Origin: a virus
Virus record (IMG/VR): IMGVR_UViG_3300040801_001333
Coordinates: 1-27,813 of that record
DNA length: 27,813 bases
Strand: one strand, 5' to 3'
A program made the position numbers and the translations under genes. Position 1 is the stretch's first letter. Each line of letters opens with the position of its first letter. Positions 10,487 through 26,793 of this stretch are shown here, one piece after another. The notes under the pieces were generated by a model. It was not told the DNA's origin. It did no database searches and saw nothing but the letters and a program-made list of their open reading frames with translations.

Positions 10487-10825
10487 ATGGCACCTGATTG
10501 GCTAAGACAAGAGCGCCGGAGCAGTCCATCAAGAGAAGAGGTCGAGGCACTGGTTGCACTTAATTTGCGGATTGTGGCTGAACAGGTGGAAGAGAATAAA
10601 TGTGAGTTAAGAGAGAATACTGAGCTTCTAACAAGGCTCCAATTTGAACTTAGCTCAATGAATCAGCTGTTGCAGGAACATAAGAAGTCTAGTGAAGAAA
10701 TGTTAGATTCTTTTAAGTTCCTGAAAAGGTTAAAGGCTTTTGGCTGGGGCGTGTTTATAATTCTGGCGGCCATACTGGCTTTTGCTAAAGATGGTCTTGA
10801 TATTATTCACCACTGGTTTAAGTAA
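10487..10825 (+). CDS. Coiled-coil membrane protein, C-terminal anchor
   Basis: A 112-aa protein: a charged, Glu-rich helix with heptad-like spacing (about 16-80), a basic patch (KFLKRLK, 77-83), one membrane segment (FGWGVFIILAAILAFA, about 85-100) and a short tail with His and Trp. No lipobox or N-terminal signal. The build resembles small phage membrane proteins annotated as putative holins or tail-anchored membrane proteins, but it stands at the head of the tail genes and its stop overlaps the next start (TAATG). It could be a second lysis or superinfection protein, or a membrane chaperone for tail assembly. The gene is A/T-rich compared with its neighbours. Start chosen at ATG 10487; the binding site (GAGA) is weak. 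Confidence 0.65.
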   Translation: MAPDWLRQERRSSPSREEVEALVALNLRIVAEQVEENKCELRENTELLTRLQFELSSMNQLLQEHKKSSEEMLDSFKFLKRLKAFGWGVFIILAAILAFAKDGLDIIHHWFK

Positions 10826-12084
10826 TGCCTAAAGAAGCTGCGCCCATTTTCAAATCTCCTCTTGGGGTCAACAATATAGACGACCCGAGGGCACCAGCTT
10901 TTCAGGATTCTTCTGTATTGACTAAGGCCCAGAATGTAGATTTAGACCGGAATGGTTTTGTCCGGCGGCGAGTTGGGCGAACGAAGTTTCTTGACTTAAC
11001 CTCAGCTCATTCGTTGTATGCTTCGGGGGATCGGCTGTTTCTGGTGGACAGTGGTACCCTTTATGAGGTTACCCCTGACTACACTCTGATACCTCTTGAC
11101 ACTGGACTTGGTCAGGCGCCGGTTAGTTACGCAGAGGTGGCTGGTCAGGTTTTCTATGCCAATGAAGCAAAGGTTGGTGTAGTTGGGGGTTTTTGGGGAA
11201 TCAGTACACCCTCTTCTCCACATTGCGTGGTTACGGTAGGCAATATGCCTCCGGGTCGGTATCTGGTGGCGGTAGTAGCGGTGCGGGGTGGGGTGGAGTC
11301 TGGTGCTCGTATGCCGTCTGTTGTGGAGTTATCAGCGGTAGGTGGGTTAGAGTTGCATGTGGCGGCTGTTGACTTAGGGGTGGATGCTCTTGCGGTATAC
11401 TGCTCCGAACCAAATGGGCAGGAACTGTATTTTCAGGGAGAATTTGCCACTACTAGCCCTATTCGTTTACAGCATATTGGTGTATCTACTGACCTCCTAA
11501 CAACATTAGGGCACTACCCGCCGCCGCCCGGCCAGCACATCGCGGCTTTCCGTGGTCTCATGCTTGTGGCTTCGGGCTCGGCGCTGTACTGGTCACAGCC
11601 CCTGGCCTACCATCACTTCCGAGTGCAGACCGATGTCCAGCTGTTCCCCGAGCGAATTGTCCTTCTGGCTGCTTTTGATGCTGGGTTCTTCGTTGCCACT
11701 GCTAGCCGGACTTATTGGGTCGCTGGCCAAGAGCCTGATGGATGGCAGCCCCAAGTCGTCGACACTCGGCGAGTTGCGGAAGGGGCAGCTTTGCGTATTC
11801 CCGCACAGAAGCTGCCAGGTTTGCAGTCTCAAGGCGAAGTGTCCGTATGGGCAACAGAAGATGGATTCGTTGCCGGACTTGCCAACGGCACTATCCAGCA
11901 TCTCACTGACGGACGCCTGGCCGTCGATGCTTACAAACAAGCCGCGTTTGCTTTTCGAGAAGAGGGTGGACTGCGGCAAATCCTTATGAGTCTACAGACG
12001 AAAGACTCAGACACGCGCTTTGGTGCAACAGACAGGGTGACCTGTCGAGTAATACGAGCAAATGAATCGACAGGAGAAGCCTGA
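10825..12084 (+). CDS. Tail nozzle/stabilisation-type protein
   Basis: A 419-aa beta-rich protein. The N-terminus has the pattern LGVNNIDDPRAPAF... AQNVDLDRNGFVRRRVGRTKF (about 13-55), typical of phage tail proteins that start with 'G-V-N-N', followed by a 'D-D-G-RRR-G' block and then propeller-like repeats (short strands ending in LYASGDRLFLVD, TLYEVT, VFYANEAK). These proteins close the podovirus tail channel below the adaptors. No enzyme motif is present. Base composition changes sharply near 11,515: the first half uses T/G-rich codons and the second half is distinctly G+C-rich, suggesting a recombination joint inside the gene. The stop overlaps the next ATG (12081-12084). Confidence 0.65.
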   Translation: MPKEAAPIFKSPLGVNNIDDPRAPAFQDSSVLTKAQNVDLDRNGFVRRRVGRTKFLDLTSAHSLYASGDRLFLVDSGTLYEVTPDYTLIPLDTGLGQAPVSYAEVAGQVFYANEAKVGVVGGFWGISTPSSPHCVVTVGNMPPGRYLVAVVAVRGGVESGARMPSVVELSAVGGLELHVAAVDLGVDALAVYCSEPNGQELYFQGEFATTSPIRLQHIGVSTDLLTTLGHYPPPPGQHIAAFRGLMLVASGSALYWSQPLAYHHFRVQTDVQLFPERIVLLAAFDAGFFVATASRTYWVAGQEPDGWQPQVVDTRRVAEGAALRIPAQKLPGLQSQGEVSVWATEDGFVAGLANGTIQHLTDGRLAVDAYKQAAFAFREEGGLRQILMSLQTKDSDTRFGATDRVTCRVIRANESTGEA

Positions 12085-12815
12085 TGAATGAGTTTAGTCT
12101 GACCAAGAACCCGGTTACCTCGCTTGTGCGAGACCTCCGCAAGGCGCTGACGGCCAACAAGTATGAGAAGGACGGCGCCCTGATCCATGTAGGCGGCGAC
12201 GTGAATATCAGCATGGGTGGTGTGTTCACCTCCTGGGTTCTCCGGCATCCTATCGTACAGCGCGCGATCGAGACCGGCGACCATGCTGCTGAGATGGCCG
12301 CTCGGGCGATTGTTAACACCGCCCACGATACCGGCTTCGTCAAGATGATGGAGAGCGCGGACCACAACCAGATCCCGGATGCCGGCATCAACTACATCCT
12401 GGATGTGATCTACGGTTCGACCAGTAAGAAGACCACCTGGTATCACGGCCCGTTTAAGAGCAATTGGTCGAGCTTCGCTTCTGCGCAGTCGAACTGGGCC
12501 GGCGCCGGCTCGGGGCCTCTGGCTACTGAGCTGGCCAACGCTGAGTACGACGAGGCCAACCGCCAGGCGGCAATCTTCGGCGATGCGGCCGCGTCCAAGT
12601 CACTCACGGCCTCAGCTGCGACCCGGTTCACCCTGGCAACGGGTGTCAGTGGGATCACTCTCTACGGCTCGACGCTGAACAGTTCCTCGACCGTGGCTTA
12701 CAACGCGACTGATCAGGTCTTGCTTGCTGCCGCTCAGTTCGGCTCGGCCAAGTCAGGCCTTGGCGCTGCGGACAAGATCGACATCGAATACGAGATCGTC
12801 GGCTCGAGCACCTGA
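12084..12815 (+). CDS. Conserved tail structural candidate
   Basis: A 243-aa protein. The N-terminal half contains GGDVNISMGGVFTSWV (about 38-53) and the unusual block NYILDVIYGSTSKKTTWYHG (about 102-121). The rest is Ala-rich helix (residues 130-175) and then beta strands with many Ser/Thr. It is part of the overlapping tail operon, 3 nt before the CAP-domain gene. I do not recognise a named family; a minor virion protein is inferred from position and composition. High G+C and C-ending codons contrast with the genes before 11.5 kb. Confidence 0.55.
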   Translation: MNEFSLTKNPVTSLVRDLRKALTANKYEKDGALIHVGGDVNISMGGVFTSWVLRHPIVQRAIETGDHAAEMAARAIVNTAHDTGFVKMMESADHNQIPDAGINYILDVIYGSTSKKTTWYHGPFKSNWSSFASAQSNWAGAGSGPLATELANAEYDEANRQAAIFGDAAASKSLTASAATRFTLATGVSGITLYGSTLNSSSTVAYNATDQVLLAAAQFGSAKSGLGAADKIDIEYEIVGSST

Positions 12816-12818
12816 ACC

Positions 12819-15800
12819 ATGGCTGGCCGCTACATCGGGCCGATGAACGAGTACCCTCGCGGCCCGGTGACTCGAACAGCTCCTATGCGGGGACGAGTGC
12901 AAGTGCTCGTCCAGCGGCTGCTCGACCGTATGAAGATGGGCGGCTTTAAGGTGTTGTCGGGCACTGAGGTTCAGGCCGACGGCTCGGTCATTGTGGTCTG
13001 GGCGCAGATGAACGGGCTGCACCCGGTGGTGAAGACTCAGGTGTTTGCGCCGAGTCCGACGAAGCGGATTCTGCAGCCGAAGCTTCCTTCTGTCTGGGTG
13101 GCACCCTTTGTCTGGGAGCCCGAAGGTTTTGTCATTACTCCTCGCTCCAAATCACTCGCCACGCAAGGGTGGGGCATGCCGCGCCTCACCATGCAGTATG
13201 ACGCGAGCAAAGTGGATCTCAAAGAGCGCTACGCTCTGCGTCCGGTGGACGAACAACAAGCAGCCAAGGAGAGAGAGGAAGCAATTCAAGCAGTGCAGGG
13301 GGATGACGAAGCAGTAGCGTTAGCTGAAGTAGCACTGTACCAAGGGCGAGGCACTGCCTATAACAGCCACCACTATAACGAGTTGGAAGGGGACGGAGCT
13401 GAGAAGAAAGTATTTATCAACCAATTTCGAGGTAACAAAAAGCCTGAAGTGTTATTCGAGGTTCTGCTAGCTCAGCTAGTAGACGGTGAGATAGTGTCCC
13501 CCAGCCAAGCAGAGCACCTGCGTCGGAAAATGACCCCAACGACATGGCCGCTCTTCTTTGGCGATGGAGACCTGCTAGTCGTTCGGGCGTCTCATCCAGA
13601 CGGTGTTTCGACGCTTTTTGGATGGCAGTTCGAGCAAACCCTAGACAACCCAGAAGAGCAAGAACCATGGGAGCGAGGGGCTAAAGTGCCACGACAGCAG
13701 GTTAGGCGGGAGGCTGAGTTTGACAGATCAATCAGGTTGATCGAGGAACTTCCTGTATCAGATACTTGGTTTTGTCATTGGCCTAAAGAGTCACCTTATA
13801 CTGACCCTTTTCGACTGGAGTTGTTCCGGCTAGTTAACGAAGCACGGGCCGCTGCGGATCGCCCGCCTTTATGCTTCCCAACTGACCCAGCGAGTGTGTC
13901 TGCCGAACTAACACTGGTGCAGATGCAGAAACACCGCACCATGGCGCATAACTCTGAACGCTACGACTATAGGTATCGTGGTCTGTTTTCTCGCGCAAGC
14001 ATGGATGGGATGCCTTCGGGTTTTGGCGAGAATCTTATCGGTGGTCTACGGTTGACTGAGGAGGACCGAGAAGGGATTGATGCAGACACCCCGTATGCTA
14101 ATGAGTTAGCTTTAGCCACTAAGGCCAACCAGATATGGACAAACTCTCCTGGTCATTACGCAAACATGATTGCGGAATGGAACAGGGCCGAGTATTCACC
14201 CATACATCCTTTTCAATCTGCAAGAAGTGGCGAACTGCGTCTTACAAAAGGGCCAGCGCTTTTCCGTTATGTAGGTCCGCCCAACAATCAATGGACTGAG
14301 ACTGAGTATGACCCGGAGATTTCGGGGATAAGTGCAGTGGAGCATTTTTTTGCGACTCGTGATTTTCAATCACTTTGTGGGCAGATGTCTTGGGAAAGCG
14401 GAACGGGCGAGGTTGTGTCTTGGATGACGGATCGCCCTTTCAGATACGCACTGATCAGAACGCGCCCTTCTGTTTTCTTCAAGCATCCAGAATGGGATAC
14501 CCCCTCGAATCACGAGCTTGCGACCGAGATACAGTTTATGGCCCAGTTCTGGGTTTTCTATCGAGGGCGGGGGGTCCGCTTTGCTGATAATTTTCGTGTT
14601 ATGGGCGCCGCTATTTGTGGAAAGGAGTTGCGAGCAGCGCTGTACGACACATTAAAACATGAGATAGTGCTCGTTTCTTCTCCTTTGGCGGTCACCTACG
14701 AAGAGACAGACGAGAGTGACATAGAAGAAGCTGCGGTTGACATAACCATACTGACCCGTTACCGCTTGACGAGCAATGACTATGCCGTTTCTTTCGCTCA
14801 TTTTTCGCAGGATGGGTCTAAGTGTGTTTTCCCTGTCGTCTCTGGAGGGTCAGGAGTTAATCGTAAGTTTGGTATAGTCAATGAGACGAAGAAAGAGGCT
14901 TATCTTTCGTGGGTAAAAATAGGAGGGCACAACTTTGCCACCTACTCCTATAACCCTACTTACGGATCAACGAACCCTCCGGCCGAGCATGATGCAACAT
15001 GGAGTCAGATTAGGCATGTAGTGCTGGAAGAAGCCGGGGGTACGGTTGTTTCCCAATTCGAGCCCGAGTGTCAGCGAGATGTTTTTAACGGGAAGTATAA
15101 TTACTCGTTCAGTGGGCAGGGGAATATCTATGCCGATTATGTCGACAACCGGCTTGTCTTTGCACATGTAACGCTTGAGTTTGACACAAAAAGCCATGTC
15201 ATGGAAAAGACCTTGCACTGGCCTGGCGGGTCTCTTGTCGTACAGAAATCAGACATCGCCTATTTTACGCTTGATAGAGCAGCAGAGATAGAGTATCGGC
15301 TTGTCGAGCTATTACATTTCGACCTCCGGCACCCTGAAGATATAACCTACTCCGAGCTAGATTCTTCTGGTTATCCCAAAGGAGAGGGAAGGTACCGCAC
15401 CCCCGTAGAGCGAAAACTGTATGTGCGTGGCGAGCATGTGTGGACTTCCGCGCCTACCCCGCGCCATATCGATTCAGAATCGTTCGGTTCGGTGCGTAAT
15501 GTAAAGTTTGATGACTATAAATTCTCAGCGGAGGCTCCAAAGGCATACATGCGCCAACTACAGACCGCTGGCGGAGGAATGTACTTTGGTCGATTCTTAT
15601 CTTTAGGTTGGCATCAAGCGGCGCTGCTAGGTGAGTTGAATGTTTATGGGGCCTTTATCGCAACCTGGTGGTCACAAAGTGGTTACGAGCGCAAAGGGTT
15701 GCTGGATGAGTTTTGGCACGCCGATCGTATGGGCTTCACAGCATTGGATGAAGTGGCCCAGAACGGGCTGTATGATAAGGGTGATCACGGGGTAATAGGA

Positions 15801-16442
15801 GGAAGCCCGAGCTTTATGCCTTGGGTACAAAAGCGAAGCCTGCAGTGGGGCTATTTTCTTTCCGATTCAATTATCCACGAAACACAAGCCCAATTTGTTC
15901 GGTATAAGGACGATTATATATTCCAGGCATTTCAGCCTTTTTGGCTGGCGCAGTTACCACTGGTCTCTGATATGCCGTATGACAGTATACCCTTAAACCC
16001 TGAAACCGAGGTTACTTATTTTGCTTGTCCGGCGGGCACGTTCTCTAATGGTTCAAAATGTTACACCGTCGCGCCAGATGGTTCTTGGGAATACTCTTGC
16101 GATATCCAAGAGGTAACACTCCCGGTCACGTATGTAGATGGTGATGTTGCTTTTCCCTCGCTTTGGTATAACGATCCTCATCGGCAAGCCGGCACACCGG
16201 GAGGCCACACCCCAGGGTATAATCCCTATGACCATCCGGTAGGCGAGGCGTACACTGCCCAATACAACAATTATTTGTTGTGGCTGAACGAGCCGAGTAA
16301 GCGTTCTTATTGGTACGGCGTAACCGGGGTCCATTTTACAGAGCATGACAATTGTTGGTTACGCTTTTCTTCGTTAGATTTAGCCGAGATCACAGGTGTT
16401 GATGATCTTGCCAATAACATCAGCCCGCTGGGGGTCGTATGA
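12819..16442 (+). CDS. Large tail protein with embedded CAP (SCP/PR-1) domain
   Basis: A 1207-aa protein in three parts. Residues 1 to about 90 form a conserved-looking start module (VLSGTEV, VVWAQMNG). Residues about 328-450 match the CAP fold in order: helix FRLELFRLVNEARAAADRPP; MQKHRTMAHNS with H372 and H377; GENL with E404; NQIWTNSPGHYANM with H446. The pairs of His and the Glu correspond to the cavity residues of CAP proteins. Bacterial CAP domains are usually secreted or wall-associated, with no agreed reaction. The rest (about 470-1207) is beta-rich and unrecognised, with a Cys segment near 1070-1094 (CPAGTF..GSKCY). Position in the tail operon suggests a virion appendage that touches the cell surface. 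Composition shifts near 13.2 kb, just after the start module. Starts at ATG 12819, 3 nt after the previous stop. Confidence 0.75.
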   Translation: MAGRYIGPMNEYPRGPVTRTAPMRGRVQVLVQRLLDRMKMGGFKVLSGTEVQADGSVIVVWAQMNGLHPVVKTQVFAPSPTKRILQPKLPSVWVAPFVWEPEGFVITPRSKSLATQGWGMPRLTMQYDASKVDLKERYALRPVDEQQAAKEREEAIQAVQGDDEAVALAEVALYQGRGTAYNSHHYNELEGDGAEKKVFINQFRGNKKPEVLFEVLLAQLVDGEIVSPSQAEHLRRKMTPTTWPLFFGDGDLLVVRASHPDGVSTLFGWQFEQTLDNPEEQEPWERGAKVPRQQVRREAEFDRSIRLIEELPVSDTWFCHWPKESPYTDPFRLELFRLVNEARAAADRPPLCFPTDPASVSAELTLVQMQKHRTMAHNSERYDYRYRGLFSRASMDGMPSGFGENLIGGLRLTEEDREGIDADTPYANELALATKANQIWTNSPGHYANMIAEWNRAEYSPIHPFQSARSGELRLTKGPALFRYVGPPNNQWTETEYDPEISGISAVEHFFATRDFQSLCGQMSWESGTGEVVSWMTDRPFRYALIRTRPSVFFKHPEWDTPSNHELATEIQFMAQFWVFYRGRGVRFADNFRVMGAAICGKELRAALYDTLKHEIVLVSSPLAVTYEETDESDIEEAAVDITILTRYRLTSNDYAVSFAHFSQDGSKCVFPVVSGGSGVNRKFGIVNETKKEAYLSWVKIGGHNFATYSYNPTYGSTNPPAEHDATWSQIRHVVLEEAGGTVVSQFEPECQRDVFNGKYNYSFSGQGNIYADYVDNRLVFAHVTLEFDTKSHVMEKTLHWPGGSLVVQKSDIAYFTLDRAAEIEYRLVELLHFDLRHPEDITYSELDSSGYPKGEGRYRTPVERKLYVRGEHVWTSAPTPRHIDSESFGSVRNVKFDDYKFSAEAPKAYMRQLQTAGGGMYFGRFLSLGWHQAALLGELNVYGAFIATWWSQSGYERKGLLDEFWHADRMGFTALDEVAQNGLYDKGDHGVIGGSPSFMPWVQKRSLQWGYFLSDSIIHETQAQFVRYKDDYIFQAFQPFWLAQLPLVSDMPYDSIPLNPETEVTYFACPAGTFSNGSKCYTVAPDGSWEYSCDIQEVTLPVTYVDGDVAFPSLWYNDPHRQAGTPGGHTPGYNPYDHPVGEAYTAQYNNYLLWLNEPSKRSYWYGVTGVHFTEHDNCWLRFSSLDLAEITGVDDLANNISPLGVV

Positions 16443-16882
16443 TTAAGTTAAGCACCGGGTTACGGGCTGCCATATTGGGACAGTTCGGGGTGATGGCAAT
16501 GATGTACCAAGGTGTCATCGATCTCTACGACGACGCTCCGCCTGCGACCCCTGATGAGCCGCCTAATGGGCGGCTCCTAGCACGCGTCTCTAAAAACGGA
16601 CTGGCTTTTCAGGCGGGATCAGGTACAAACGGTCTGGAACTGGTCCAGCGCTACGACGCTTCGTTGGCCGATAACGGTACCTGGTATGTCGGGGGCCTGG
16701 AAAACGGCACGCTTACTTGGTGGCGCTGGAAGTGGAAGCTGGCTGATCCTGACACACAGAGTCGGTACTACCCACGGGTCGATGGACTGGTGGGGGAGTC
16801 ATTGATCTTACCCTCACGTGAGGTGTCTCCGACATCTATCCTGAAGATAGATGAGTTCAACTTAACACTAGGTGCATGCTGA
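16439..16882 (+). CDS. Small tail-region protein, paralogue A
   Basis: A 147-aa beta-rich protein, ATGA overlap with the preceding gene. The opening pattern STGLRAAIL... GVIDLYDDAPPATPDEP (about 5-43) belongs to a frequent but unnamed group of phage tail-region proteins that begin 'STGL...L' and contain 'I-YSGA-PA-ADEA'. The next gene has the same pattern. A small tail-tip or fibre-associated protein is inferred. The middle is aromatic (TWYVGG, TLTWWRWKWK, about 80-100), a possible carbohydrate-contact surface, which is speculation. Confidence 0.6.
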   Translation: MIKLSTGLRAAILGQFGVMAMMYQGVIDLYDDAPPATPDEPPNGRLLARVSKNGLAFQAGSGTNGLELVQRYDASLADNGTWYVGGLENGTLTWWRWKWKLADPDTQSRYYPRVDGLVGESLILPSREVSPTSILKIDEFNLTLGAC

Positions 16883-17325
16883 TGTCTTTCAAATACTCGA
16901 CTGGCTTTAAGAACGATGTGCTGGATACCGGCTCGGTAAAGGCCACGTTTGCTGATATGGTCATTATCGTCTACTCGGGCGCAGTGCCCGCAACAGCGGA
17001 CGAGGCAACTGGAAGTGCGGTTCCTCTACTGACGTTCACCGATGGCGGCGGCGCCGGGGGGCTGGACCTAGCGGCTAGTGCTGCAAGCGGTGTTATCGAA
17101 AAGCTGAGTACGCAGACTTGGCAGGGCGTTGCAGTCGCAGACGGTACTCCTTCGTTTTTCCGTGCCGAAACCTCCTCTGATGACCAATCCGCGAGTACAT
17201 CCTACAAGCGTATCCAAGGCACGGTTGGCGTGACCGGGGCAGACCTTAATATGTCGTCAGCAACAATCGTCAACGGCGATACCTATAACCTGGATTACTT
17301 CGTCCTGGAGTTTATGAATGGTTAA
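16882..17325 (+). CDS. Small tail-region protein, paralogue B
   Basis: A 147-aa protein starting at ATG 16882 in a TGATG overlap; an in-frame ATG at 16876 would add two residues. It aligns by eye with the preceding protein: YSTGFKNDVLDTG, MVIIVYSGAVPATADEA, then GGGAGGLDLAASAASG in place of GSGTNGLEL. This copy is closer to the common form of the family (YSGAVPATADEA). No Cys, signal or membrane segment. Tandem duplication followed by divergence is likely. Structural role inferred. Confidence 0.65.
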   Translation: MSFKYSTGFKNDVLDTGSVKATFADMVIIVYSGAVPATADEATGSAVPLLTFTDGGGAGGLDLAASAASGVIEKLSTQTWQGVAVADGTPSFFRAETSSDDQSASTSYKRIQGTVGVTGADLNMSSATIVNGDTYNLDYFVLEFMNG

Positions 17326-17956
17326 GGTGGATGTGCATATCCTGCGCTCTCTCGGCGAACGGGAAGACTGGTTTCAACACTGCCTAGAATCCCTAGAGCG
17401 CGAGCCAGTCAATATCCATGTGCTGGAAGGCGTGCCAGACCACATTGGCAAGGGGCGTAAGGCCGGTCTGCAAGCCGGCACCGAGCCTTACGTGGCGTAT
17501 GTGGACCCAGACGATCTGGTTTGCCGGGGGGCATTTCAGGCGTGCATTGATGCCCTCCAGGCGGACGCCAGTAAAGCGGTCGCGTATACCGGAGAGGCCA
17601 GGGTCTCGAAAGACGGTGTGCTACTGGCGGCCTACGATCGCAAGCTATATGAGCCTTTTTTCGGGACGCCTGATGAGGCGTTACGAGCGCATCATCTCTG
17701 CGTTTATCGCCGGACTGCACTCCCGAACCTGAACTTCCTAGATGATTTTCCATTCATGCCTGAGCAGGCACTCAAAACGCGCCTGTGGAATCACAATTTC
17801 GTCTATGTAGATCGTATCGGCTACCAGTGGCGGCAGCATCAAGGGGGCGCATCTAAGCGTCGGTGGGCCAGCACTCCTGAAATGGGCGCTTTGTTGGCCC
17901 GCCAAAGCAGTATGTGGAAACGCCTGTTCGCGCCGAAGACAGGGGATGAGCGATGA
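17318..17956 (+). CDS. GT-A family glycosyltransferase-like protein
   Basis: A 212-aa protein that reads as a small family-2-like glycosyltransferase. It has an N-terminal strand (VKVDVHILRSL), a second strand (VNIHVLEG), a helix with GKGRKAGLQAG (about 44-54), then YVAYVDPDDLV, with D63-P64-D65-D66 as the DXD-type nucleotide-sugar/metal site ending the nucleotide-binding half. The second half has DDFPFMPEQAL (about 141-151) and GYQWRQH, the area expected to hold the catalytic base, then a basic tail. It overlaps the previous gene by 8 nt and the next by 4, so it is a true member of the tail operon. It may glycosylate a virion protein or modify host surface sugars; the acceptor is unknown. 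Without a membrane segment it should act in the cytoplasm. Confidence 0.75.
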   Translation: MVKVDVHILRSLGEREDWFQHCLESLEREPVNIHVLEGVPDHIGKGRKAGLQAGTEPYVAYVDPDDLVCRGAFQACIDALQADASKAVAYTGEARVSKDGVLLAAYDRKLYEPFFGTPDEALRAHHLCVYRRTALPNLNFLDDFPFMPEQALKTRLWNHNFVYVDRIGYQWRQHQGGASKRRWASTPEMGALLARQSSMWKRLFAPKTGDER

Positions 17957-18513
17957 GTACCAGATTAGATGTCACCTCGCCCGACTTTTGGGTTGTCCAA
18001 AACCCGGAATCTGCCTCAATCGCTTATACCGAAGGCGTCTGGTTGGGTACGCATGAGGTGGAAAGCCAGGTTGTACTGCGCACCTCAGCTTATGGTGAAG
18101 TAAGCTACGGAGTGTGGGACTATATCTACCCAACCAACCGGTCCTTCTGGGAGGAATATGCGGAGGTCAATGTTTTAGAAATTCTGATTGAAGGGGAGAA
18201 CTGGACGGGCCACCCCCCACCGCAAGATGAGGATTGGAAGCTGCTCCGCCGCATTGATTTAGACACCGTGCTAGACAGTGATTATCTTGGGGAAACGGAT
18301 GTTGCGTATGAGGTAACGACCGAGCATAGCAAGGCCACGTTTAATAGCCCTTTCCCGCTTAATAGGCTCGGTGGATTAGAGCTTATGTTGAACGGTAGCT
18401 ACTACACTGATGCTGCTTGTTTCTACAATAAGATTTATATCACCCTTGATGCGGTTATAGATCAGCCGTTTTGGCAGAGTTACCGCCATACCGTAGAAGT
18501 TTTGCCTGAGTAA
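17953..18513 (+). CDS. Tail-region protein with SPDFW motif, paralogue A
   Basis: A 186-aa acidic, aromatic-rich, beta-type protein, ATGA overlap with the glycosyltransferase gene. The start, LDVTSPDFWVVQNPESASIAYTEGVW, is repeated in the next gene (YDLMSPDFWAVAQYGGSPMSYQNGMW), including the later SFWEEYAE/SFWTLMAD block. I do not recognise a family. Probably a small virion or fibre-tip protein. Confidence 0.6.
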   Translation: MSTRLDVTSPDFWVVQNPESASIAYTEGVWLGTHEVESQVVLRTSAYGEVSYGVWDYIYPTNRSFWEEYAEVNVLEILIEGENWTGHPPPQDEDWKLLRRIDLDTVLDSDYLGETDVAYEVTTEHSKATFNSPFPLNRLGGLELMLNGSYYTDAACFYNKIYITLDAVIDQPFWQSYRHTVEVLPE

Positions 18514-18518: not shown

Positions 18519-19310
18519 ATGAGCGATGTATACGACTTGATGTCCCCGGACTTCTGGGCGGTAGCTCAGTATGGTGGGTCTCCTATGTCGTATCAGAACG
18601 GCATGTGGACCGGGCCGTACTATCCGGTTGGACGGCTGGCTCCGATCCGAGAGGACTATTACTATGACGGCTATTTGATCTATGCAGCCAACTCATTCTG
18701 GACGCTAATGGCTGACCGACTGATCGAGCAGATCATTGTTACCGGGACAAACTATGAGTATGGCACCCAACGTAATCTGTCCCTGTCAGTAGGATTAGCT
18801 GGAACCTACACGACGAACATTGTAAATGAGGCAGACACGTCCGTCTTTACAGTAGACCCGGCCACTCCCTTACCAATCAGTGATCTGCTCTATGTCGGGT
18901 TGTCAACGTATGGCACCGATTTTAATGACTACACCCCGACCCCCTCTAACGGCTATACCAGTCTGAGTCTGGTACTGACTGCAGAGGAAGAGGAAGAGGA
19001 AGAGGTAGGCCCACCGACGTTTACAGTCCCCACTCCGACGACTGGGGGACTCGTCAAGGTAAGTAACTATAGGAAAGTCCAGGTCGTTACAGGGCAGCGC
19101 TGTGTGCAGTGGGATTGCCCGCCGCCGCCGCCGCCACCGGACAAACCTGATCTCCCACCTCCTATCCCTGAACCGCCCACCCCTGCGCCAACCCCCCCAC
19201 CACGAGCGCCCTGTGACTACGGGGCGCTCTTGGGATCGATGCCTCCAGGTGTTTCCGGGGTATCCATTGGTAGTTGTGGACACTACTCGATCCAAGGCGG
19301 GGAAGAATAA
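18519..19310 (+). CDS. Tail-region protein with SPDFW motif, Pro-rich extension, paralogue B
   Basis: A 263-aa protein. The first 155 residues are homologous in pattern to the preceding gene product. The C-terminal extension is unlike it: a run of eight Glu (about 157-163), a short strand region, then Cys-flanked polyproline (C-PPPPPPP-DKPDLPPP ... PPPRAPC, about 200-235) and a Gly/Ser-rich end with two more Cys. Such a linker is stiff and extended, typical of a stalk. The coding DNA has short tandem units, GAGGAA at about 18984-19005 and CCG/GCC at about 19119-19135, that can slip in frame. Stop overlaps the next ATG (TAATG, 19308-19312). Confidence 0.6.
   Translation: MSDVYDLMSPDFWAVAQYGGSPMSYQNGMWTGPYYPVGRLAPIREDYYYDGYLIYAANSFWTLMADRLIEQIIVTGTNYEYGTQRNLSLSVGLAGTYTTNIVNEADTSVFTVDPATPLPISDLLYVGLSTYGTDFNDYTPTPSNGYTSLSLVLTAEEEEEEEVGPPTFTVPTPTTGGLVKVSNYRKVQVVTGQRCVQWDCPPPPPPPDKPDLPPPIPEPPTPAPTPPPRAPCDYGALLGSMPPGVSGVSIGSCGHYSIQGGEE
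18984..19005 (+). repeat. GAGGAA microsatellite encoding poly-Glu
   Basis: About three and a half tandem GAGGAA units give the Glu run in the SPDFW paralogue B. The unit is six bases, so copy number change keeps the frame. Confidence 0.8.
19119..19135 (+). repeat. CCG triplet run encoding polyproline
   Basis: Five or more tandem CCG/GCC triplets encode the start of the Pro-rich linker just after a Cys codon. Copy number change would alter linker length in frame. Confidence 0.75.
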
Positions 19311-21817
19311 TGACTAGCTGCACCTGCGTTGCGTATGAGGATATCATTGGCGAGGCCGAAGACCGGACCCCGGCCTGGAACGGTGCGGCGACGAGTATCC
19401 CCAAATTAACCTCTGACGGGTACTTCGGGTTTCGGATCAGCTCTGCGTCTGTAGCAGTCGCTATCGGTCTGACCCCCTCCATCATTTACAACGGCTATGG
19501 TCCAATCACCCATGGGCTCTTGGTTGAGCGTGGGATGGTGCGGATTCTGGAGTCTGGAGGGATAACGCCCACAGCAGTCCGTGTGTCGAATGATGATTGG
19601 CTGTACATCGCCCGAAAGGGTAATACCGTCTCATACTGCGTCAGCCCCTACGTGGTAGGGGGGTTTTTCCCTGGCAGAGTATTTGCCACCAGCGCGGTGC
19701 CTTCGTCGGGGAGTCTTTATCTCGGTGCCGCTCTATTTGCCCAGAACGACGCTATTCTAGCAGCGTTTTTTGATGAATCGTTCTCTTACTACCAGGGCTA
19801 TGCCCGTGGCGAGTTCGGCCTACGTGGGCTAGGGTTAGCGGGAGTGCGCCCGCCGTTGGGGATGTCTGGAGAGTTTAAGGTCTCGGGGTTCGCCTCTATT
19901 GGGGATTATGGTCGGGCGGCTGGGTGGTTTGAGGTTAGTGGTGAGGGCAGCATACCCCCTATCCCGCGCCCTTGTGGCGCACGAGGAACGCTTGTCTTGG
20001 CTGGGTTTGCTGGTCAGGGTAATTATGGGAGAGCTGCTGGCCGGTTCACCCTGGCAGGCTCTACAGTCTCCCGACTGTTAAGCCAAAGCCGCGGGGTGTT
20101 TAGGGTCAGTGGGTACGGTGGACAGGGGAACTATGGGCGTGGCCGTGGGGGGTTCAGTTTAGCGGGGGAGTCGACTAGCCTTTATCGCCCGCTGTATATG
20201 GGTGCCCGTGGCACGTTCTCTGTCCAACCGCATCCAGCTTATATTCGCCACACTAAGGCGGTGCGTGCGATTGGCGGGTTTAGGCTCGGTGGGGTTGCTG
20301 CGCACACTACCCAGAGCGGGATTAGGGGAAGGTTCAAGCTAGCTGTTTTTGCTGCCGCGCAACGCTCGGCTGAGACAGCCTGGCTGCGTATGAGGTGGAA
20401 ACTTACAGATAATAGTTACCGAATACGTTCAGCGTTCTCCGTGTCTACTCCGCTTACTGCGGCAGCGGTCTATACCTTGTTGGAGCGCTTAGGGGTATCG
20501 GCCTCTCCACAAGTAGTGTTGACCGTTCATTCGTATCTCGCCTCGGCAGCGGCTTTAGTCGATCTGGTCCGTTTTATCGCCCGCGCTGAGCAGGCCGATA
20601 CCCTCGAGCTGACTGAACAGTTCGCCTCGGCCTTCACGGCAGTCTTTGTATTGGCCTCCACCCTCACCGCCCAGTCCAGCTTCGCCCCCACAACCGAGCA
20701 GACTGCTGCCCTGTCCGACACCCTGCAGACCGCCGATCGCTTCGCCTTTGTGGCGCGGCTGTTGGTCTCAAGCGGGCTTGTGGCTCACGACGCCCTGCTT
20801 GGTGATCCGAAACGAGCCTGCCAGATGGCCGACAAGGTCAACCTGGCGGTGCAAGCACTGGGTACCGCCGAGCTGGTGGCCTCGCTGGGTGATGATCTGG
20901 CGCTGAACGAAGCGTTCCTGTACCTGGCCCGGCTGGCCCTTGGAGACACGGCGGCGTTCGAGGCTACCTTCAGCGCGGATGACATCGTCCGCATCTGCCG
21001 GCTGGCCGAGACCATTGTGCTGGCCGATCGGCATGCGGCGACGCTGGAGATTCTGGTCGGACTGGTTGAGGCCGCCGTGCTGTTGGACGGGGTCGATCCT
21101 CGCCATGCGCTGACGGCGAGCGACACGCTGGCCGCCACCGACGCGCTGGTTGCCGGCCTCATGGCTCGGCTGTCCCAGCTCGACACCCTGCAACTGCTCG
21201 ATCAGATGCAACGGGGGATCACCTTCGTGGCGACTTCGAGCGACGCCCTGGCCCTGACCGCTGACCCGACGGCGACCCTTATCGCATTGCTGCGCCACCG
21301 CGACGTGCTCGCTTTCATTGGCCGGCTGCCGCTGGGCGATGAGGATTACCAAGTCTGGGTACTCAACTCCGACAGCCTGGGCGTCACCGAGTACACCAAC
21401 TTCCCGTTCAACGGGCTGGCAGATACCCCGCGCGGCACCTTCGGGTTGACTGATACCGGGCTCTACGAGTTGGCCGGCGACACTGACGACGGCGAGCCAA
21501 TTGCTGCGCTGTTAAGGACGGGAGACTTAGATTTAGGCTCATCATTACATAAGCGCGTTGACAGGGCGTATCTGTATTTAACCAGTACCGATGACGTGTA
21601 TCTGAAAACGATCTCGACCCACCGTGGTCAGCGTAATGAAGCTTGGTACTTGGTAAACCATCGGCCTGATTCCGATGATGGGCAAACACGTCGGGTGAGA
21701 CTTGGTAAGGGCACGAAGGGCACTACATGGGCCTTTGAGCTAACTAATGTTAATGGCGGTGATTTCGATGTCCGAGGTGCCGAAGTGCTGCCGCTCAAAC
21801 TGATGAGGAGAATCTGA
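19310..21817 (+). CDS. Large modular tail protein with Gly-rich repeats
   Basis: An 835-aa protein (start ATG 19310 in TAATG; a longer start at 19274 is unlikely). It begins with CTC, then a lectin-like beta domain (about 15-160). Residues about 180-310 hold three Gly-rich repeats 36-39 aa apart (GF..IGDYGRAAGWFEVSG, GFAGQGNYGRAAGRFTLAG, GYGGQGNYGRGRGGFSLAG) with weaker copies around them. Residues about 397-667 are an Ala/Leu-rich helical region with recurring 'D-L/ADR' units. The last part (about 677-835; YQVWVLNSDSLGVTEYTNFPFNG... LTDTGLYELAGD... FELTNVNGGDF) is a module found at the end of many phage tail proteins. Function: tail fibre/baseplate-like component, inferred. The helical DNA (about 20,480-21,480) is much more G+C-rich than both flanks. 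Confidence 0.6.
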   Translation: MTSCTCVAYEDIIGEAEDRTPAWNGAATSIPKLTSDGYFGFRISSASVAVAIGLTPSIIYNGYGPITHGLLVERGMVRILESGGITPTAVRVSNDDWLYIARKGNTVSYCVSPYVVGGFFPGRVFATSAVPSSGSLYLGAALFAQNDAILAAFFDESFSYYQGYARGEFGLRGLGLAGVRPPLGMSGEFKVSGFASIGDYGRAAGWFEVSGEGSIPPIPRPCGARGTLVLAGFAGQGNYGRAAGRFTLAGSTVSRLLSQSRGVFRVSGYGGQGNYGRGRGGFSLAGESTSLYRPLYMGARGTFSVQPHPAYIRHTKAVRAIGGFRLGGVAAHTTQSGIRGRFKLAVFAAAQRSAETAWLRMRWKLTDNSYRIRSAFSVSTPLTAAAVYTLLERLGVSASPQVVLTVHSYLASAAALVDLVRFIARAEQADTLELTEQFASAFTAVFVLASTLTAQSSFAPTTEQTAALSDTLQTADRFAFVARLLVSSGLVAHDALLGDPKRACQMADKVNLAVQALGTAELVASLGDDLALNEAFLYLARLALGDTAAFEATFSADDIVRICRLAETIVLADRHAATLEILVGLVEAAVLLDGVDPRHALTASDTLAATDALVAGLMARLSQLDTLQLLDQMQRGITFVATSSDALALTADPTATLIALLRHRDVLAFIGRLPLGDEDYQVWVLNSDSLGVTEYTNFPFNGLADTPRGTFGLTDTGLYELAGDTDDGEPIAALLRTGDLDLGSSLHKRVDRAYLYLTSTDDVYLKTISTHRGQRNEAWYLVNHRPDSDDGQTRRVRLGKGTKGTTWAFELTNVNGGDFDVRGAEVLPLKLMRRI

Positions 21818-21818
21818 C

Positions 21819-24800
21819 ATGTCTTGTCCTGACCTTGCTGGAGGCTTGGGTAATCTCACGATCGGTCAGACCGGTGCGTCGACTGAAGTTAAGAGTTACA
21901 TCCGCGATATTCAGGCGGACACGCATGCGTGGTCGTACAGCGCGAAGTTGTCCCTGAACGCCCTAGAGCGTGCCCTCAGCGACCTAGAAACGACCACCAC
22001 CCCGCCCGAACCCTTCGACTTCAGCATGACGCTGGACAGCGTCGTTGGGGACTACGACGCCACGTTACCAGCGCCGCTCCCTGTTGCACCGTGGACGCCT
22101 GATAGTAAAGCGCCGAGTTATGACGGGGAAACGACCTGTGATGTGGGGTCTAACCCGGTAGCCAGGCCCGGTACAATTGACCTGACTGTGGTGGCCCCCG
22201 CTGCCTACGTGGCCCCCTCACAAACGCTGTACACTCCGATTGTCCCGGAGGTCTCGGATCTCAGTAACGACATCGTTTACACCGACCCAGGCGATCGCCC
22301 TGTGTCTAGCGCCGTCGATCCAGTGGCGCTCTATGTCGCCCCCGAAGCACTGTCGCCTGACCTGAATAACATCCGTTTGCCAGGTGATCCGCCGCCGACA
22401 GCGCCGACCGCGCCGGACTTCGCTACGCTGGTCCCGACTTTCGATACGACGCCGACTGTAACGCCGCTTGATTGGTCAGATAAGCCCTCGGCTCCTGCGG
22501 GCTACGACGCAGGTAGCATAAGCTGGGACTTCAACGACTCAGCCCCTTCGTTTGACACGAAGCCTCCGACTATAGACTATTCGGGTGCGCCGGGCGCCTT
22601 TGAGCCAGACACGGTGCCTACTCCCGTAGAGCTGACGCCAGTCACACCTGCCACCTACGATCCGCCAGATAACCCGGAGCAGTTGACACTGACCGACGTG
22701 GTTATCCCTGATGTGCCGGACATTGATCTGACTGACTTCGAGCCGATCACCACTAACTTCGGCGAATTAGATAAGTTGGAGGGCGCGCTCTCGTATCAAG
22801 ACGACGGCTTTTCCGATGGGCATCTTGCAGAGCTAGTCGTTGACATCAAGCGCGTACTCGCTGGGAATGTGGGCCTGCCCCCTGCGATCTGGGATGCGAT
22901 CTGGGACAAGGCTTCGGCTCAGATCACTCGTGCAGGCGTAGCCCGCGAGCGCCAGGGTCGACAGGCTTGGGCCAAGCTCGGCTGGAGTATGCCTGGCGGC
23001 GTGGCGCTGGCTCAGCAGGAACAAGCGGCGTTCGACATCAACCAGCAGCTGAGCGATAAGGCCAAGGAGCAGGCGATCCAGCGGGCGGTGATGAGCCGTG
23101 AGGATTTCTGGAAAGCCATGGAGCAAGGCGTCACTGCCGAGAAGCTACTCCGCGACCACTACCATGCGTTCCAGGAGCGGCAGCTCAAGGCACAGATCGC
23201 AATGGTCGAGACGATGGTCGCGGTCTACAACGCCAACGTCTCTCGTTATAACGCCAATGTTGCCTCGACTCAGGCGCTCATTGCGCTGCGTGACCAGGAA
23301 ATCCGCACGCTAATGGTTCCGCTGGATGTGGCTAAGGCCCGCATCGAGGGGGCGGGTATGCAGGTCCAGGCCCAGGGGCAGAAGCTGCAGAACCAAGCGC
23401 TGAAGTGGGAGCAGGTCAAGCTTGCACTGCAGCAGTACACGGCAGAGATCGAGAGCAAGAAGAACGAGCTGCTGTTCCAGGCACAGCGGTTGGAACTGTT
23501 CGGCTCCCAGGTCAAGCTGCGCGAGACCGAGGTGCTGGAGTGGTCGAAGAAATGGGACGGCTACGCCTCGAAGATCGAGGCACAGAAGGCGATCTCGTCT
23601 ACCTTCAGTGCTGAAGTCGCGTCCTTTGCTGAACGGGTTAAGGGGTACACGGCGACCGTCGAGGCCGAACGCTCGAAGGTGCTGGCTGAGGCGGAGACCG
23701 AGCGCTTTAAGATCGAGGCCGCCAAGTACGAGCTGGAGGAGTTCAACGCGAAATGGGAGCACGTTCTCAAGACAAACTCCCTCCTGTCCCAGCGTGACGA
23801 CACCGCTGTTAAGCTCTATAGCGCTGGAGTTCAGAAGTCCGCGACCGTCGCACAAGCGAATACCCAGGTGGAGAATTTGCGTCTTGAGTCGTTCAAGAGC
23901 GAAGTGTCGGCCTACCAAGCGAAGCTAGAGGACGCTGCGCGGCGGGCCTCCGCTATCGCAACCTACTACGGAGCAGAGGCCGCGCGCTACCAGGCGGACG
24001 CTGCCGGGGCAAAGGCCGCGATCGACGCGAGTGCGACCCGCGTTCAGGCGCAGGCGAGTGTCGTGGACGCGGAAGCACGGGCGTACAGCGCTGCGGTCGA
24101 GGGGGAAAAGACTTCTGCGCAGATGGACGCCCTGGTCATCGAGACCGAGATGAAGCACGAGCAGATTGCCTGGGAGAACCAGAAGCAGCTGGCCGAGGCA
24201 TCAGCGCTGGCTTACGACGCCGCCCACAAGGGGGCCGTCGCTGCGGTCGAAGCCTCACGTCACATTTCTGCGGCCAACGCGCAGAACCAATCGGTCAAGG
24301 CCGCGGAGGCCAGCGCCAATGCGCAGGCATACTCAGCCGGGGCGCAGCAGTTAACGGCGGAAACGAACGCTAACGCTAAGGCGATTGATGCGGCTATCGC
24401 GGCGACCCAAGCGGAGATCGCGGTGTATGACGCTGAGACGAAGCGTGAAGCGGCAAGGCTGCAGTCCGATGCGCAGGTTGCCAGCGCCGATGCCTCAAGG
24501 GCCAACGCCCGCAGCTCCTGGGCAGAGTCGAAGGTGCGCTCCCAAGCTGTGCAGCTGCAGGCTGAGGCTGAGCAGGCGAAGCTCGATCAGACAGAGATGA
24601 TTGAAGAGGCTAAACTGCAGATGCAGAAGCTTTTGCAGCTTTCTACCGTGCAGATTAGGGGGCTGGAGTCGATCTCACAGATCTACGCTCAGCTGGTGGC
24701 CGGCGCCTACAGCGCGGCGAATATCAGCGCAAGCATTGGTGATAGCTACTCGGGCAGCATGTCTGGGTCGGTCGGCTGCAGCGAAAATACCAATATAAAC

Positions 24801-24824
24801 TTTGAAGGCGTTGCCGAGGATTAA
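21819..24824 (+). CDS. Long coiled-coil virion protein
   Basis: A 1001-aa protein with AGGAG 8 nt upstream of ATG 21819. Residues 1 to about 330 are Pro/Asp/Thr-rich and probably extended. A compact module at about 350-395 (LPPAIWDAIWDKASAQITRA ... RQAWAKLGWSMPGG) is the most conserved-looking part. From about 395 to 960 it is nearly all Ala/Gln/Glu/Lys helix with heptad-like spacing, a coiled-coil rod. The end is Gly/Ser-rich with one Cys (SYSGSMSGSVGC). No membrane segment or enzyme motif. It could be a tail appendage rod, an internal core protein or a tape-like protein; the podovirus context makes a classical tape measure less likely. Antisense open frames here are mirror images of its Ala/Gln-rich codons. 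Confidence 0.6.
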   Translation: MSCPDLAGGLGNLTIGQTGASTEVKSYIRDIQADTHAWSYSAKLSLNALERALSDLETTTTPPEPFDFSMTLDSVVGDYDATLPAPLPVAPWTPDSKAPSYDGETTCDVGSNPVARPGTIDLTVVAPAAYVAPSQTLYTPIVPEVSDLSNDIVYTDPGDRPVSSAVDPVALYVAPEALSPDLNNIRLPGDPPPTAPTAPDFATLVPTFDTTPTVTPLDWSDKPSAPAGYDAGSISWDFNDSAPSFDTKPPTIDYSGAPGAFEPDTVPTPVELTPVTPATYDPPDNPEQLTLTDVVIPDVPDIDLTDFEPITTNFGELDKLEGALSYQDDGFSDGHLAELVVDIKRVLAGNVGLPPAIWDAIWDKASAQITRAGVARERQGRQAWAKLGWSMPGGVALAQQEQAAFDINQQLSDKAKEQAIQRAVMSREDFWKAMEQGVTAEKLLRDHYHAFQERQLKAQIAMVETMVAVYNANVSRYNANVASTQALIALRDQEIRTLMVPLDVAKARIEGAGMQVQAQGQKLQNQALKWEQVKLALQQYTAEIESKKNELLFQAQRLELFGSQVKLRETEVLEWSKKWDGYASKIEAQKAISSTFSAEVASFAERVKGYTATVEAERSKVLAEAETERFKIEAAKYELEEFNAKWEHVLKTNSLLSQRDDTAVKLYSAGVQKSATVAQANTQVENLRLESFKSEVSAYQAKLEDAARRASAIATYYGAEAARYQADAAGAKAAIDASATRVQAQASVVDAEARAYSAAVEGEKTSAQMDALVIETEMKHEQIAWENQKQLAEASALAYDAAHKGAVAAVEASRHISAANAQNQSVKAAEASANAQAYSAGAQQLTAETNANAKAIDAAIAATQAEIAVYDAETKREAARLQSDAQVASADASRANARSSWAESKVRSQAVQLQAEAEQAKLDQTEMIEEAKLQMQKLLQLSTVQIRGLESISQIYAQLVAGAYSAANISASIGDSYSGSMSGSVGCSENTNINFEGVAED

Positions 24825-24825
24825 T

Positions 24826-26793
24826 ATGACTAAGGTATTAGAAGACTTACGGGCTAAGGGTATTCCTTATAAGTTTAGCGGAGAATGGCCAGATCCGAAG
24901 CTACAATCGGGAAATACTTCGATAGTTCCAACGAGAAATAGTACTCCTGTAATTAATCCAGTTCCGGAGTCTACCCGTCCTGTTCCAACTGCACCAGGTG
25001 CAGTGTTTGGCCCGCTGGGAGACAATGGGTTGTTCAGGTCGGCTGTGACTCCCTCATTAGATTCAGTCCCTCCAGGGCCGGCACAGTTAGCGCAATTGGA
25101 GCCTGTTAGTAACCCAATCAAGTATGACCCTAACGTATTAGTTCGTCCTGCAGAATCTACAGGATCTAGAAGTCTATTGCCAGCACAGATCAAGGATAGG
25201 CATAATGAGACAATGGGTGCTCTTAATCAACAAGCTATAGCTGCCGGGGAACCTACAAATACTGTGCCTCCTGGTGGATTATTATCTGCCTATGGTATGC
25301 CTAATAGGGGGCCGGGTGTGCTTAGTCCCGTATCGCCGGTTTCAGCTAGTTCATCTTCAGCTCCACCTATACCATCAGCAAGTAATCCTCAAGAAGAATC
25401 TTCTGGATGGCAAAAGGCTTTGAATATTGGTGGGATGGCTGCAGGTCTTGCAGGTCTTGGAGCAGCTGCTAGGCTTCCGGGTTTAATAGCTAATCCTCTT
25501 TCAGGTCTACCCCCTAGAACACCGACACCACCTGGCATGGCAGCGCGAGGGGCAAGCGCTTTAGGTAGGGCCGTATTAAAACCGTTTGCTACTCACCCGG
25601 CTACGGCGGCGATAGGCGGAATGCTGTATTCAGGGAATACTCAAACAGACGAGCAGGAGATGGCTGAGAAAGCTAAATGGGAATCAGGTGAATATAGTTT
25701 GCCTGAGGGGTATACGGAAGCTACTACTCCAGAAGAGCGGGGCCAGTTGTTGGCAGACCCTGATTGGATAAAGACTAATGGCGCTGATCCTGAGCTTAGA
25801 ACAGAGAAGCCTAGTTGGGATCATACAGGTAGTGTACCTGTAGTGCCCGGTGGAGCAGGGGATTCAGGCAACAATGCTCTAGGTACCGGCACTTCTTCTG
25901 CCTTAAATGTGCCCGACAACTGGACCAGAACCATCACCCAATCAGCCACTGATCCGGGTAGAGAGATCGCGGCGTACTCAAATGGAAAAGGAAGTTGGAT
26001 GACTGGGGAACGGGATGTAGGTACTGGAGGTGGAACCTTTAGTGTTATCCGTGGTCCTGGCAGCAATGGGATGAGTACGGAAGAATGGGATGCACTACCG
26101 AATGAAGAAAAGATTAGCCGGAACGTAGCGGCCATTAGAAAAGCGGGAGAAGCTCAAAGGGCACTAGCTTATGCGAAAGCAGGTAGGACTCCTCCAGAAA
26201 TGGGTGGAGATGGGGGGTATAGGAGAAGTGGAGGTTATGAAAGCAATCGTTCTCGTACTAGGACCCTAAATGAACTCATGGAAGGGCTATCGGGTGAGAT
26301 AGATACTATGGGCGGGAAAGCCAACGTGTTAACGGCTAAGGGATTGATGATGCAGCGGCACTTACCTGAAGTGTTCGATAGGGTAACGGGTAGGACAGAT
26401 GCAGCCACCGCAATGGATTGGCAGATGAAACAGCAGAACCTGGCACTGGAAAGGCAAAAGGCCATAGCGGCTCAGGCAAACGCGGACAGGACTTATGGAG
26501 TAGAGCGGGATAAGCTGGGATTAAGGGGAATAGAAACGGACCTGAAAAAGGCGGAGTATGTGGATGAGTTCCGGCAGAACTTTAGGGAGCGGTTCCATTT
26601 GCCTAATGCACCGACTGAAAGGTTGGCACAGGATGCCATTCGGATTTCCCAGGAAACCGGTATGTCACCTTATGATGTGCAACAAAAGATGGCACAGGAG
26701 TTGGCAAAGCAGAAAGGGAATGGGAAGAAGTTTGAGTGGAATAACGAGGAAAAATATAACCAATTCCTAATCAACGTAGGCACTCAGCAATGA
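24826..26793 (+). CDS. Probable internal virion (ejection) protein
   Basis: A 655-aa protein, start ATG 24826 one base after the previous stop; a longer TTG start at 24802 is unlikely. The first 190 residues are Pro/Asn/Ser-rich and disordered. Around 198-230 and 256-270 are Gly/Ala-rich hydrophobic segments (IGGMAAGLAGLGAAARLPGL; HPATAAIGGMLYSG) that could insert in a membrane. A Gly/Ser-rich middle follows, then amphipathic helices rich in Gln, Arg and Lys (about 520-600). This mix, just before another protein with similar membrane-type segments, is what one sees in podovirus proteins ejected with the DNA. I do not recognise a family; the role is inferred. Codon use is clearly A/T-richer than in the coiled-coil gene before it. 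Confidence 0.55.
   Translation: MTKVLEDLRAKGIPYKFSGEWPDPKLQSGNTSIVPTRNSTPVINPVPESTRPVPTAPGAVFGPLGDNGLFRSAVTPSLDSVPPGPAQLAQLEPVSNPIKYDPNVLVRPAESTGSRSLLPAQIKDRHNETMGALNQQAIAAGEPTNTVPPGGLLSAYGMPNRGPGVLSPVSPVSASSSSAPPIPSASNPQEESSGWQKALNIGGMAAGLAGLGAAARLPGLIANPLSGLPPRTPTPPGMAARGASALGRAVLKPFATHPATAAIGGMLYSGNTQTDEQEMAEKAKWESGEYSLPEGYTEATTPEERGQLLADPDWIKTNGADPELRTEKPSWDHTGSVPVVPGGAGDSGNNALGTGTSSALNVPDNWTRTITQSATDPGREIAAYSNGKGSWMTGERDVGTGGGTFSVIRGPGSNGMSTEEWDALPNEEKISRNVAAIRKAGEAQRALAYAKAGRTPPEMGGDGGYRRSGGYESNRSRTRTLNELMEGLSGEIDTMGGKANVLTAKGLMMQRHLPEVFDRVTGRTDAATAMDWQMKQQNLALERQKAIAAQANADRTYGVERDKLGLRGIETDLKKAEYVDEFRQNFRERFHLPNAPTERLAQDAIRISQETGMSPYDVQQKMAQELAKQKGNGKKFEWNNEEKYNQFLINVGTQQ

What the first reader, a model, noticed from the sequence alone, without database searches (positions are those of the whole stretch)
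12819..16442. CAP (SCP/PR-1) domain embedded in a large phage tail protein
Residues about 328-450 carry the CAP series (LVNEARAA, H372/H377, GEN with E404, SPGH with H446) inside a 1207-residue protein of the tail operon. CAP domains are usual in secreted bacterial and eukaryotic proteins, where they bind lipids, sterols or wall material or act in defence, but a place inside a phage tail appendage is little described. It may bind or remodel an envelope component at entry. Flanking regions match nothing I recognise.
Basis: partly seen in the sequence, partly recalled or inferred. Interest (0 to 1): 0.75.

Follow-up and report, generated by a model that had tools for sequence, protein, structure and literature searches.

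The report
CAP domain in phage tail-module protein
A large protein from the tail-gene cluster of an uncultured phage carries a domain related to the secreted CAP/PR-1 proteins of bacteria, plants and animals, and a rare family of such proteins, found in the same gene slot in other phages and prophages, keeps its key residues, so it probably acts on the bacterial envelope when the phage attaches or enters.

Summary
Residues 334-452 of the 1207-aa protein at 12819-16442 are a divergent CAP (SCP/PR-1, YkwD-type) domain. Alone it is below Pfam's cut-off. I found eight homologues (about 22-31% identical) in viral contigs and prophages, one in Paracidovorax citrulli DSM 17060, in the same slot between tail genes. 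One passes the Pfam CAP cut-off. The family profile matches a CAP profile (97.6%, E 3e-12) and finds ordinary secreted CAP proteins in bacterial genomes. Homologues of the flanking genes are solved together in PDB entry 44nx, one chain of which is identical to a phage KPP25 protein; KPP25 and Acidovorax phage AP1 have nothing in this slot. The gene follows the tail module, not the head module. Best reading: an optional virion tail appendage, with a conserved N-terminal region, CAP domain, possible beta-propeller and conserved C-terminal tail, whose CAP cavity engages an envelope component during adsorption or entry. Virion location is inferred from synteny; ligand and activity are unknown. No PHROG covers the homologues and no deposited phage in the collection matched.

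The parts
12819..16442 (+). CAP-containing tail-module protein P0001, 1207 aa, no Pfam or PHROG for the whole protein, no N-terminal hydrophobic signal segment
   Evidence: hydropathy; starts 3 nt after the upstream stop and its TGA overlaps the next ATG
13110..13145 (+). residues 98-109 VWEPEGFVITPR, the most conserved N-terminal block of the family
   Evidence: alignments A8, A10
13767..13784 (+). residues 317-322 W-x-C-H-x-P, invariant motif just before the CAP domain
13818..14174 (+). CAP domain, residues 334-452; invariant N340, R343, H377, R392, E404, N405, S443, P444, H446, Y447
14259..16370 (+). residues 481-1184, strand-rich C-terminal region, possibly a beta-propeller
   Evidence: model of the homologue L152 (pLDDT 70-87 over much of its residues 445-735), fold matches to propellers at Z 6-8, which is weak
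16371..16439 (+). residues 1185-1207, conserved C-terminal tail SLDL-ITG-DL-NI-P-G
10825..12084 (+). Hc3-type head-closure/tail protein
   Evidence: phrog_8040 E 2.5e-58; PDB 26fb_K E 3.3e-23
12084..12815 (+). tail protein, homologue of KPP25 gp08
   Evidence: A2 profile vs PDB 26la/44nx E 3.4e-65; that PDB chain is identical to KPP25 gp08
16439..16882 (+). virion protein, phrog_3758, paralogue of the next gene
16876..17325 (+). virion protein, phrog_3758, homologue of KPP25 gp07
   Evidence: PDB 44nx_B E 7.7e-29
19274..21817 (+). tail structural protein, homologue of KPP25 gp06
   Evidence: phrog_26502 E 3.8e-29; PDB 26gp/26la/44nx E 1.7e-14
21819..24824 (+). protein of the same tail module, phrog_10969
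   Evidence: conserved after the gp06 homologue in full-length family loci

Best explanation
P0001 is an optional virion tail appendage of a phage whose tail module is of the KPP25/F116 (Hc3) type. Its conserved N-terminal region and short conserved C-terminal tail probably fix it to, or order it within, the tail complex formed by the neighbouring gene products. The large strand-rich (perhaps propeller) region and the CAP domain face the host. The CAP domain keeps the polar cavity residues of bacterial CAP proteins, and by this cavity it most likely engages a component of the Gram-negative envelope (lipid, lipopolysaccharide, wall glycan or a surface protein) during adsorption or entry. Shown: CAP homology, family, synteny, invariant cavity residues, absence from the slot in sequenced relatives. 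Inferred: virion location, orientation, envelope engagement. Unknown: ligand, and whether the cavity is catalytic.
For: CAP homology in both directions: family profile vs CAP profile E 3.3e-12; member L165 passes the Pfam CAP cut-off, 25.5 vs 21.1 bits; the family profile, run on 401 genomes of the family of the P. citrulli genome, finds besides the P. citrulli copy only five short ORFs matched in the CAP part, at E 9e-6 to 3e-4, and these are secreted-type CAP proteins. N340, R343, H377, E404, S443, P444, H446, invariant in 9/9 members at about 25-30% identity, are positions that are also invariant in phage CAPs of other architectures. Conserved order Hc3 - g12084 - CAP protein - g16439/g16876 - g19274 - g21819 in independent loci. 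Flanking homologues are structural: KPP25 gp08, gp07 and gp06 types occur in one PDB entry, 44nx. KPP25 and AP1 have gp08 directly followed by gp07, so the slot is empty there. Phages close by head genes (major capsid up to 89% identical) give no match to it, while a prophage with a different major capsid family carries it, so it moves with the tail module. In ctwe8250 and MetMV the slot region holds a Sortilin/BNR-like protein, a GP4 fibre-I-type protein and a BTLCP peptidase-like protein, as expected of a slot for host-facing parts. No signal-like hydrophobic N-terminus. Mutating the CAP-cavity residues of yeast Pry3 attenuates its function (PMC7340583).
Against: No virion proteomics or structure of a member. 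The AlphaFold model of the N-terminal half is unusable, so the CAP fold and cavity geometry are not seen. CAP homology stops at residue 452, and the last strands are not recognised. The second Glu of the eukaryotic tetrad is not identified. Propeller matches are at the noise level of the method. Ligand binding by bacterial CAP domains is itself poorly known.
Confidence: 0.6

Rival explanations
1. The CAP domain is a virion-borne hydrolase: the His/Glu/His cavity holds a metal and cuts a wall peptide, envelope protein or capsule component to open the way for DNA entry.
For: The H/E/H residues are strictly conserved while the domain as a whole is only about 25-30% identical. Eukaryotic CAP cavities have been proposed to act like Zn proteases, and mutations that spare sterol binding in Pry1 weaken Pry3 function (PMC7340583). 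Related phages carry a BTLCP peptidase-like protein near the same slot.
Against: To my knowledge enzymatic activity of CAP domains is disputed and not shown for a bacterial CAP. No known hydrolase motif was found elsewhere in the protein.
Confidence: 0.17
2. The CAP domain is only a building block: an old fold reused for assembly contacts inside the tail, without binding or catalysis.
For: From general knowledge, phage tail proteins often reuse enzyme or adhesin folds structurally; the C-terminal part of the CAP profile is not matched.
Against: Strict conservation of the cavity residues H377, E404, H446 in 9 of 9 diverged members is not expected of a mere scaffold, though the N, S, P and R positions could be structural.
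Confidence: 0.15
3. It is a cargo or moron gene that acts in the infected cell or is released, not a virion part.
For: Some CAP proteins in phages are single secreted proteins outside the structural genes, for example LysM-CAP of Bacillus phage Stills.
Against: Gene is packed within the tail operon with 3-nt and overlapping junctions, order is conserved in the family loci, no signal-like segment, 900-1200 aa size.
Confidence: 0.08

Closest known systems
CAP/SCP superfamily, bacterial YkwD type (Pfam PF00188, TIGR02909, phrog_16914)
   Same: N..R, H, GEN, W-x-N-S-P-G-H signature in order; seven invariant residues shared
   Different: Sits in the middle of a 900-1200 aa phage protein without a signal peptide, with insertions of about 20 residues on either side of GEN and no recognisable last strands
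Secreted LysM-CAP protein of Bacillus phages Stills, Slash, Stahl, Staley (PMC4541274)
   Same: Phage-encoded CAP domain
   Different: About 200 aa, secreted, LysM-linked, far from the tail genes; function unknown
KPP25-type tail module (PDB 26fb, 26la, 26gp, 44nx chains; KPP25 gp09-gp06)
   Same: Homologous Hc3, gp08, gp07 and gp06 genes flank P0001 in the same order
   Different: KPP25 and AP1 have no protein in the P0001 slot
L129 large phage ORF (IMGVR_UViG_3300002703_000101, 916 aa)
   Same: Also a large viral-contig protein with an internal CAP domain (phrog_16914 E 4.4e-23)
   Different: Different protein and neighbours; a closer, canonical CAP domain; not a member of the P0001 family

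Membership tests
CAP/SCP superfamily (PF00188) | Statistically significant profile match | tested here: met
   Window protein alone below cut-off, but a homologue passes it, 25.5 vs 21.1 bits, and family vs CAP profile has probability 97.6%, E 3.3e-12
CAP/SCP superfamily (PF00188) | His, Glu (GEN) and His (SPGH) of the bacterial CAP type | tested here: met
   H377, E404, H446 invariant in 9/9 members and at the positions invariant in phage CAPs
CAP/SCP superfamily (PF00188) | Second Glu of the eukaryotic four-residue cavity | tested here: inconclusive
   No conserved Glu could be assigned in the alignment; it is not invariant in the phage CAPs either
CAP/SCP superfamily (PF00188) | Alpha-beta-alpha sandwich fold, including the last beta strands | tested here: inconclusive
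   Model of residues 1-540 has pLDDT about 33; homology ends at residue 452
CAP/SCP superfamily (PF00188) | Secreted protein with signal peptide (usual, not obligatory) | tested here: not met
   Maximum 19-residue hydropathy of the N-terminal 45 residues 0.35, against 1.68 for the Stills CAP; this feature does not define the superfamily
Tail protein of the KPP25-type tail module | Encoded between tail structural genes in conserved order | tested here: met
Tail protein of the KPP25-type tail module | Present in the virion | not testable with these tools
   needs mass spectrometry or cryo-EM of a member
Beta-propeller proteins (C-terminal part) | Propeller fold of residues about 480-1180 | tested here: inconclusive
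   Best Z 8.0 to a propeller, many propellers in the list, model only partly confident

The most novel reading that the evidence does not exclude
A phage tail module has taken up a CAP domain as an envelope-acting device: a virion CAP domain that binds or cuts an envelope molecule through its conserved His/Glu/His cavity, which would give a prokaryotic CAP domain a definite job and a genetic system in which its much debated biochemistry can be tested.
Probability: 0.45. Interest if true: 0.75.

Novelty: new variant of a known kind. Interest (0 to 1): 0.55.

Why it matters
CAP domains occur throughout life, yet what their conserved cavity does is still argued about. A phage family that keeps that cavity inside a tail-module protein offers a selectable, countable assay (plaques, adsorption) for it. 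It also brings out an uncharacterised family of large phage proteins that no Pfam, NCBIfam or PHROG model covers as a whole and that was not matched in the INPHARED phage records searched, and it points to an exchangeable slot in KPP25-type tails.

Tried and rejected
Searches that found nothing: whole-protein Pfam, NCBIfam and phage tblastn with P0001; peptide-pattern scans with P0001 or its CAP part alone; the phage and plasmid collections with homologues; 37 head-related IMG/VR records. PDB phmmer hits to glutamine-binding proteins in the CAP region rejected: one repeated stretch, no CAP signature. H372 as a cavity residue rejected: not conserved. CAP-HMM hits of 15-16.5 bits in portal proteins are partial and judged chance. 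AlphaFold models: residues 1-540 useless; the C-terminal part of L152 usable only as a strand pattern. The top Foldseek rows (paramyxovirus attachment proteins, KPP25 X5IEJ9) have TM-scores of at most 0.2 and are not taken as homology. The 1193-aa ORF after Hc3 in L029/L030 is similar in size and place but unrelated by sequence. The CAP HMM was trained on sequences chosen by the W-x-N-S-P-G-H motif, so its score is partly circular; the Pfam result on L165 and the recovery of cellular CAPs by the family profile are not.

Full report
OBSERVATION. The ORF at 12819-16442 (+) encodes 1207 aa. Against Pfam the protein alone is sub-threshold (PF00188, 12.8-15.9 bits, cut-off 21.1; E 8.6e-4 for the one record); PHROGs gives phrog_16914 at E 0.002 over residues 336-452. 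To decide, I collected phage CAP proteins by a back-translated W-x-N-S-P-G-H pattern in IMG/VR and grew a profile from them: P0001 scores 28 bits over residues 334-452, 2000 shuffles reach at most 5.7 and about 7,700 unrelated phage ORFs at most 16.5.

A FAMILY. Two of those pattern loci, L147 and L121, turned out to hold homologues of P0001 that match it well beyond the CAP domain. Scans with their alignment gave further members: L149, L150/L151/L166, L152, L153/L154, L157-L161, L165 and, in a named genome, Paracidovorax citrulli DSM 17060 (L155). Complete members are about 890-1210 aa and 22-25% identical to P0001 overall. Invariant outside the CAP domain are, among others, W99, P101-E-G-F104, T107-P-R109 (VW.PEGFVITPR in most), W317-x-C-H-x-P322; a C-terminal tail SLDL.ITG..DL..NI.P.G is shared. 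In the CAP domain N340, R343, H377, R392, E404, N405, S443, P444, H446 and Y447 are invariant in 9 of 9; H372 is H only in the window. Of these, N340, R343, H377, E404, S443, P444 and H446 correspond to columns invariant in phage CAPs of other architectures (N9, R12, H45, E69, S88, P89, H91).

CAP MEMBERSHIP. Family against CAP profile by hhalign: probability 97.6%, E 3.3e-12. L165 exceeds the Pfam gathering score (25.5 vs 21.1). The family profile, run on 401 genomes of the family of the P. citrulli genome, finds the prophage copy (4.7e-191) and five short ORFs matched in the CAP part only; all five are canonical secreted-type CAP proteins. The domain is therefore CAP by homology. Its fold could not be modelled, its last quarter is unrecognised, and only three of the four classical cavity residues can be placed.

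CONTEXT. The window is a 27.8-kb virus record with TerS, TerL, portal, major capsid and a tail module. The head genes are close to uncultured phages (major capsid up to 89% identical) and to MW202426. The tail module is of the KPP25/F116/AP1/MetMV kind. P0001 starts 3 nt after the stop of g12084 and its stop overlaps the start of g16439. In the family loci the order Hc3 - g12084 - P0001 - g16439/g16876 - g19274 - g21819 is conserved as far as each contig reaches and each neighbour is detectable. Exceptions: no g12084 match by phmmer in L121, L152 or L165; no g16439/g16876 match reported in L149; no g19274 match in L165. Homologues of Hc3, g12084, g16876 and g19274 are PDB chains 26fb_K, 26la_U/44nx, 44nx_B and 26gp/26la/44nx. 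The 171-aa chain is identical to KPP25 gp08, so these structures come from KPP25 or a phage with the same gp08, and three of the module's proteins are solved together in 44nx. KPP25 and AP1 have gp08 followed directly by gp07, and there is no family match anywhere in the KPP25, AP1, MetMV, ctwe8250 and MW202426 records. In ctwe8250 the same interval holds a Sortilin/BNR-like and a GP4 fibre-I-type protein; in MetMV a BTLCP peptidase-like protein. Head-related records show no P0001 and no CAP (several are fragments), while L161 has a different capsid family (phrog_334; window phrog_1357). The gene thus belongs to the tail module and is optional in it.

DISTRIBUTION. Beyond the P. citrulli copy, no member was found in about 400 genomes each drawn from its family, order and phylum, nor in the other 16 genomes of its genus, nor in the phage or plasmid collections. 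It is a rare family; the one named host is a Gram-negative betaproteobacterium. The window's own host is unknown.

MECHANISM. I hold it most likely that P0001 is a tail appendage whose CAP cavity engages an envelope component at adsorption or entry. The cavity residues are what selection has kept; in yeast Pry3 they matter for function, and similar mutations in Pry1 spare sterol binding (PMC7340583), so lipid binding is only one possibility and a catalytic cavity is a serious rival. The C-terminal region folds in prediction as repeated strands with propeller-like matches, too weak to claim. Steps shown: homology, family, synteny, invariance. Steps inferred: virion location, exposure, ligand.

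NOVELTY. In the literature searched, a phage CAP is described only as a secreted LysM-CAP protein of unknown role (PMC4541274). A CAP domain inside a tail-module protein appears undescribed, within the limits of an open-access library. It is a new architecture of a known domain, not a new kind of system.

Noticed in passing
17318-17956: Small glycosyltransferase-like protein (Pfam Glycos_transf_2 E 2.7e-4, just under cut-off; phrog_19440 E 2.2e-28) encoded among the tail genes, followed by two ORFs (17953-18513, 18519-19310) without matches.
   Followed up: no
16439-16882 and 16876-17325: Two tandem paralogues of phrog_3758. KPP25 and AP1 have one copy; most loci with the CAP protein have two.
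   Followed up: partly
L129:1640-4387 (-): A 916-aa ORF in a viral contig with a canonical CAP domain in its middle (phrog_16914 E 4.4e-23), unrelated to P0001: a second case of CAP inside a large phage-contig protein.
   Followed up: partly
L014:19219-20088 (+): The phrog_3758 homologue of a phage with 70% identical capsid carries an insertion of about 145 residues near its N-terminus, directly after Hc3.
   Followed up: no
10487-10825: The small ORF before Hc3 has its homologue in L030 next to the terminase instead, so this gene has moved.
   Followed up: no
24802-26793 and 27089-27811: Large ORFs at the end of the window with no convincing family match.
   Followed up: no
L004:20978-21790 (+): Methanosarcina virus MetMV has a BTLCP transglutaminase-like cysteine peptidase domain (Pfam E 8.6e-16) among the tail genes of the same module.
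   Followed up: no
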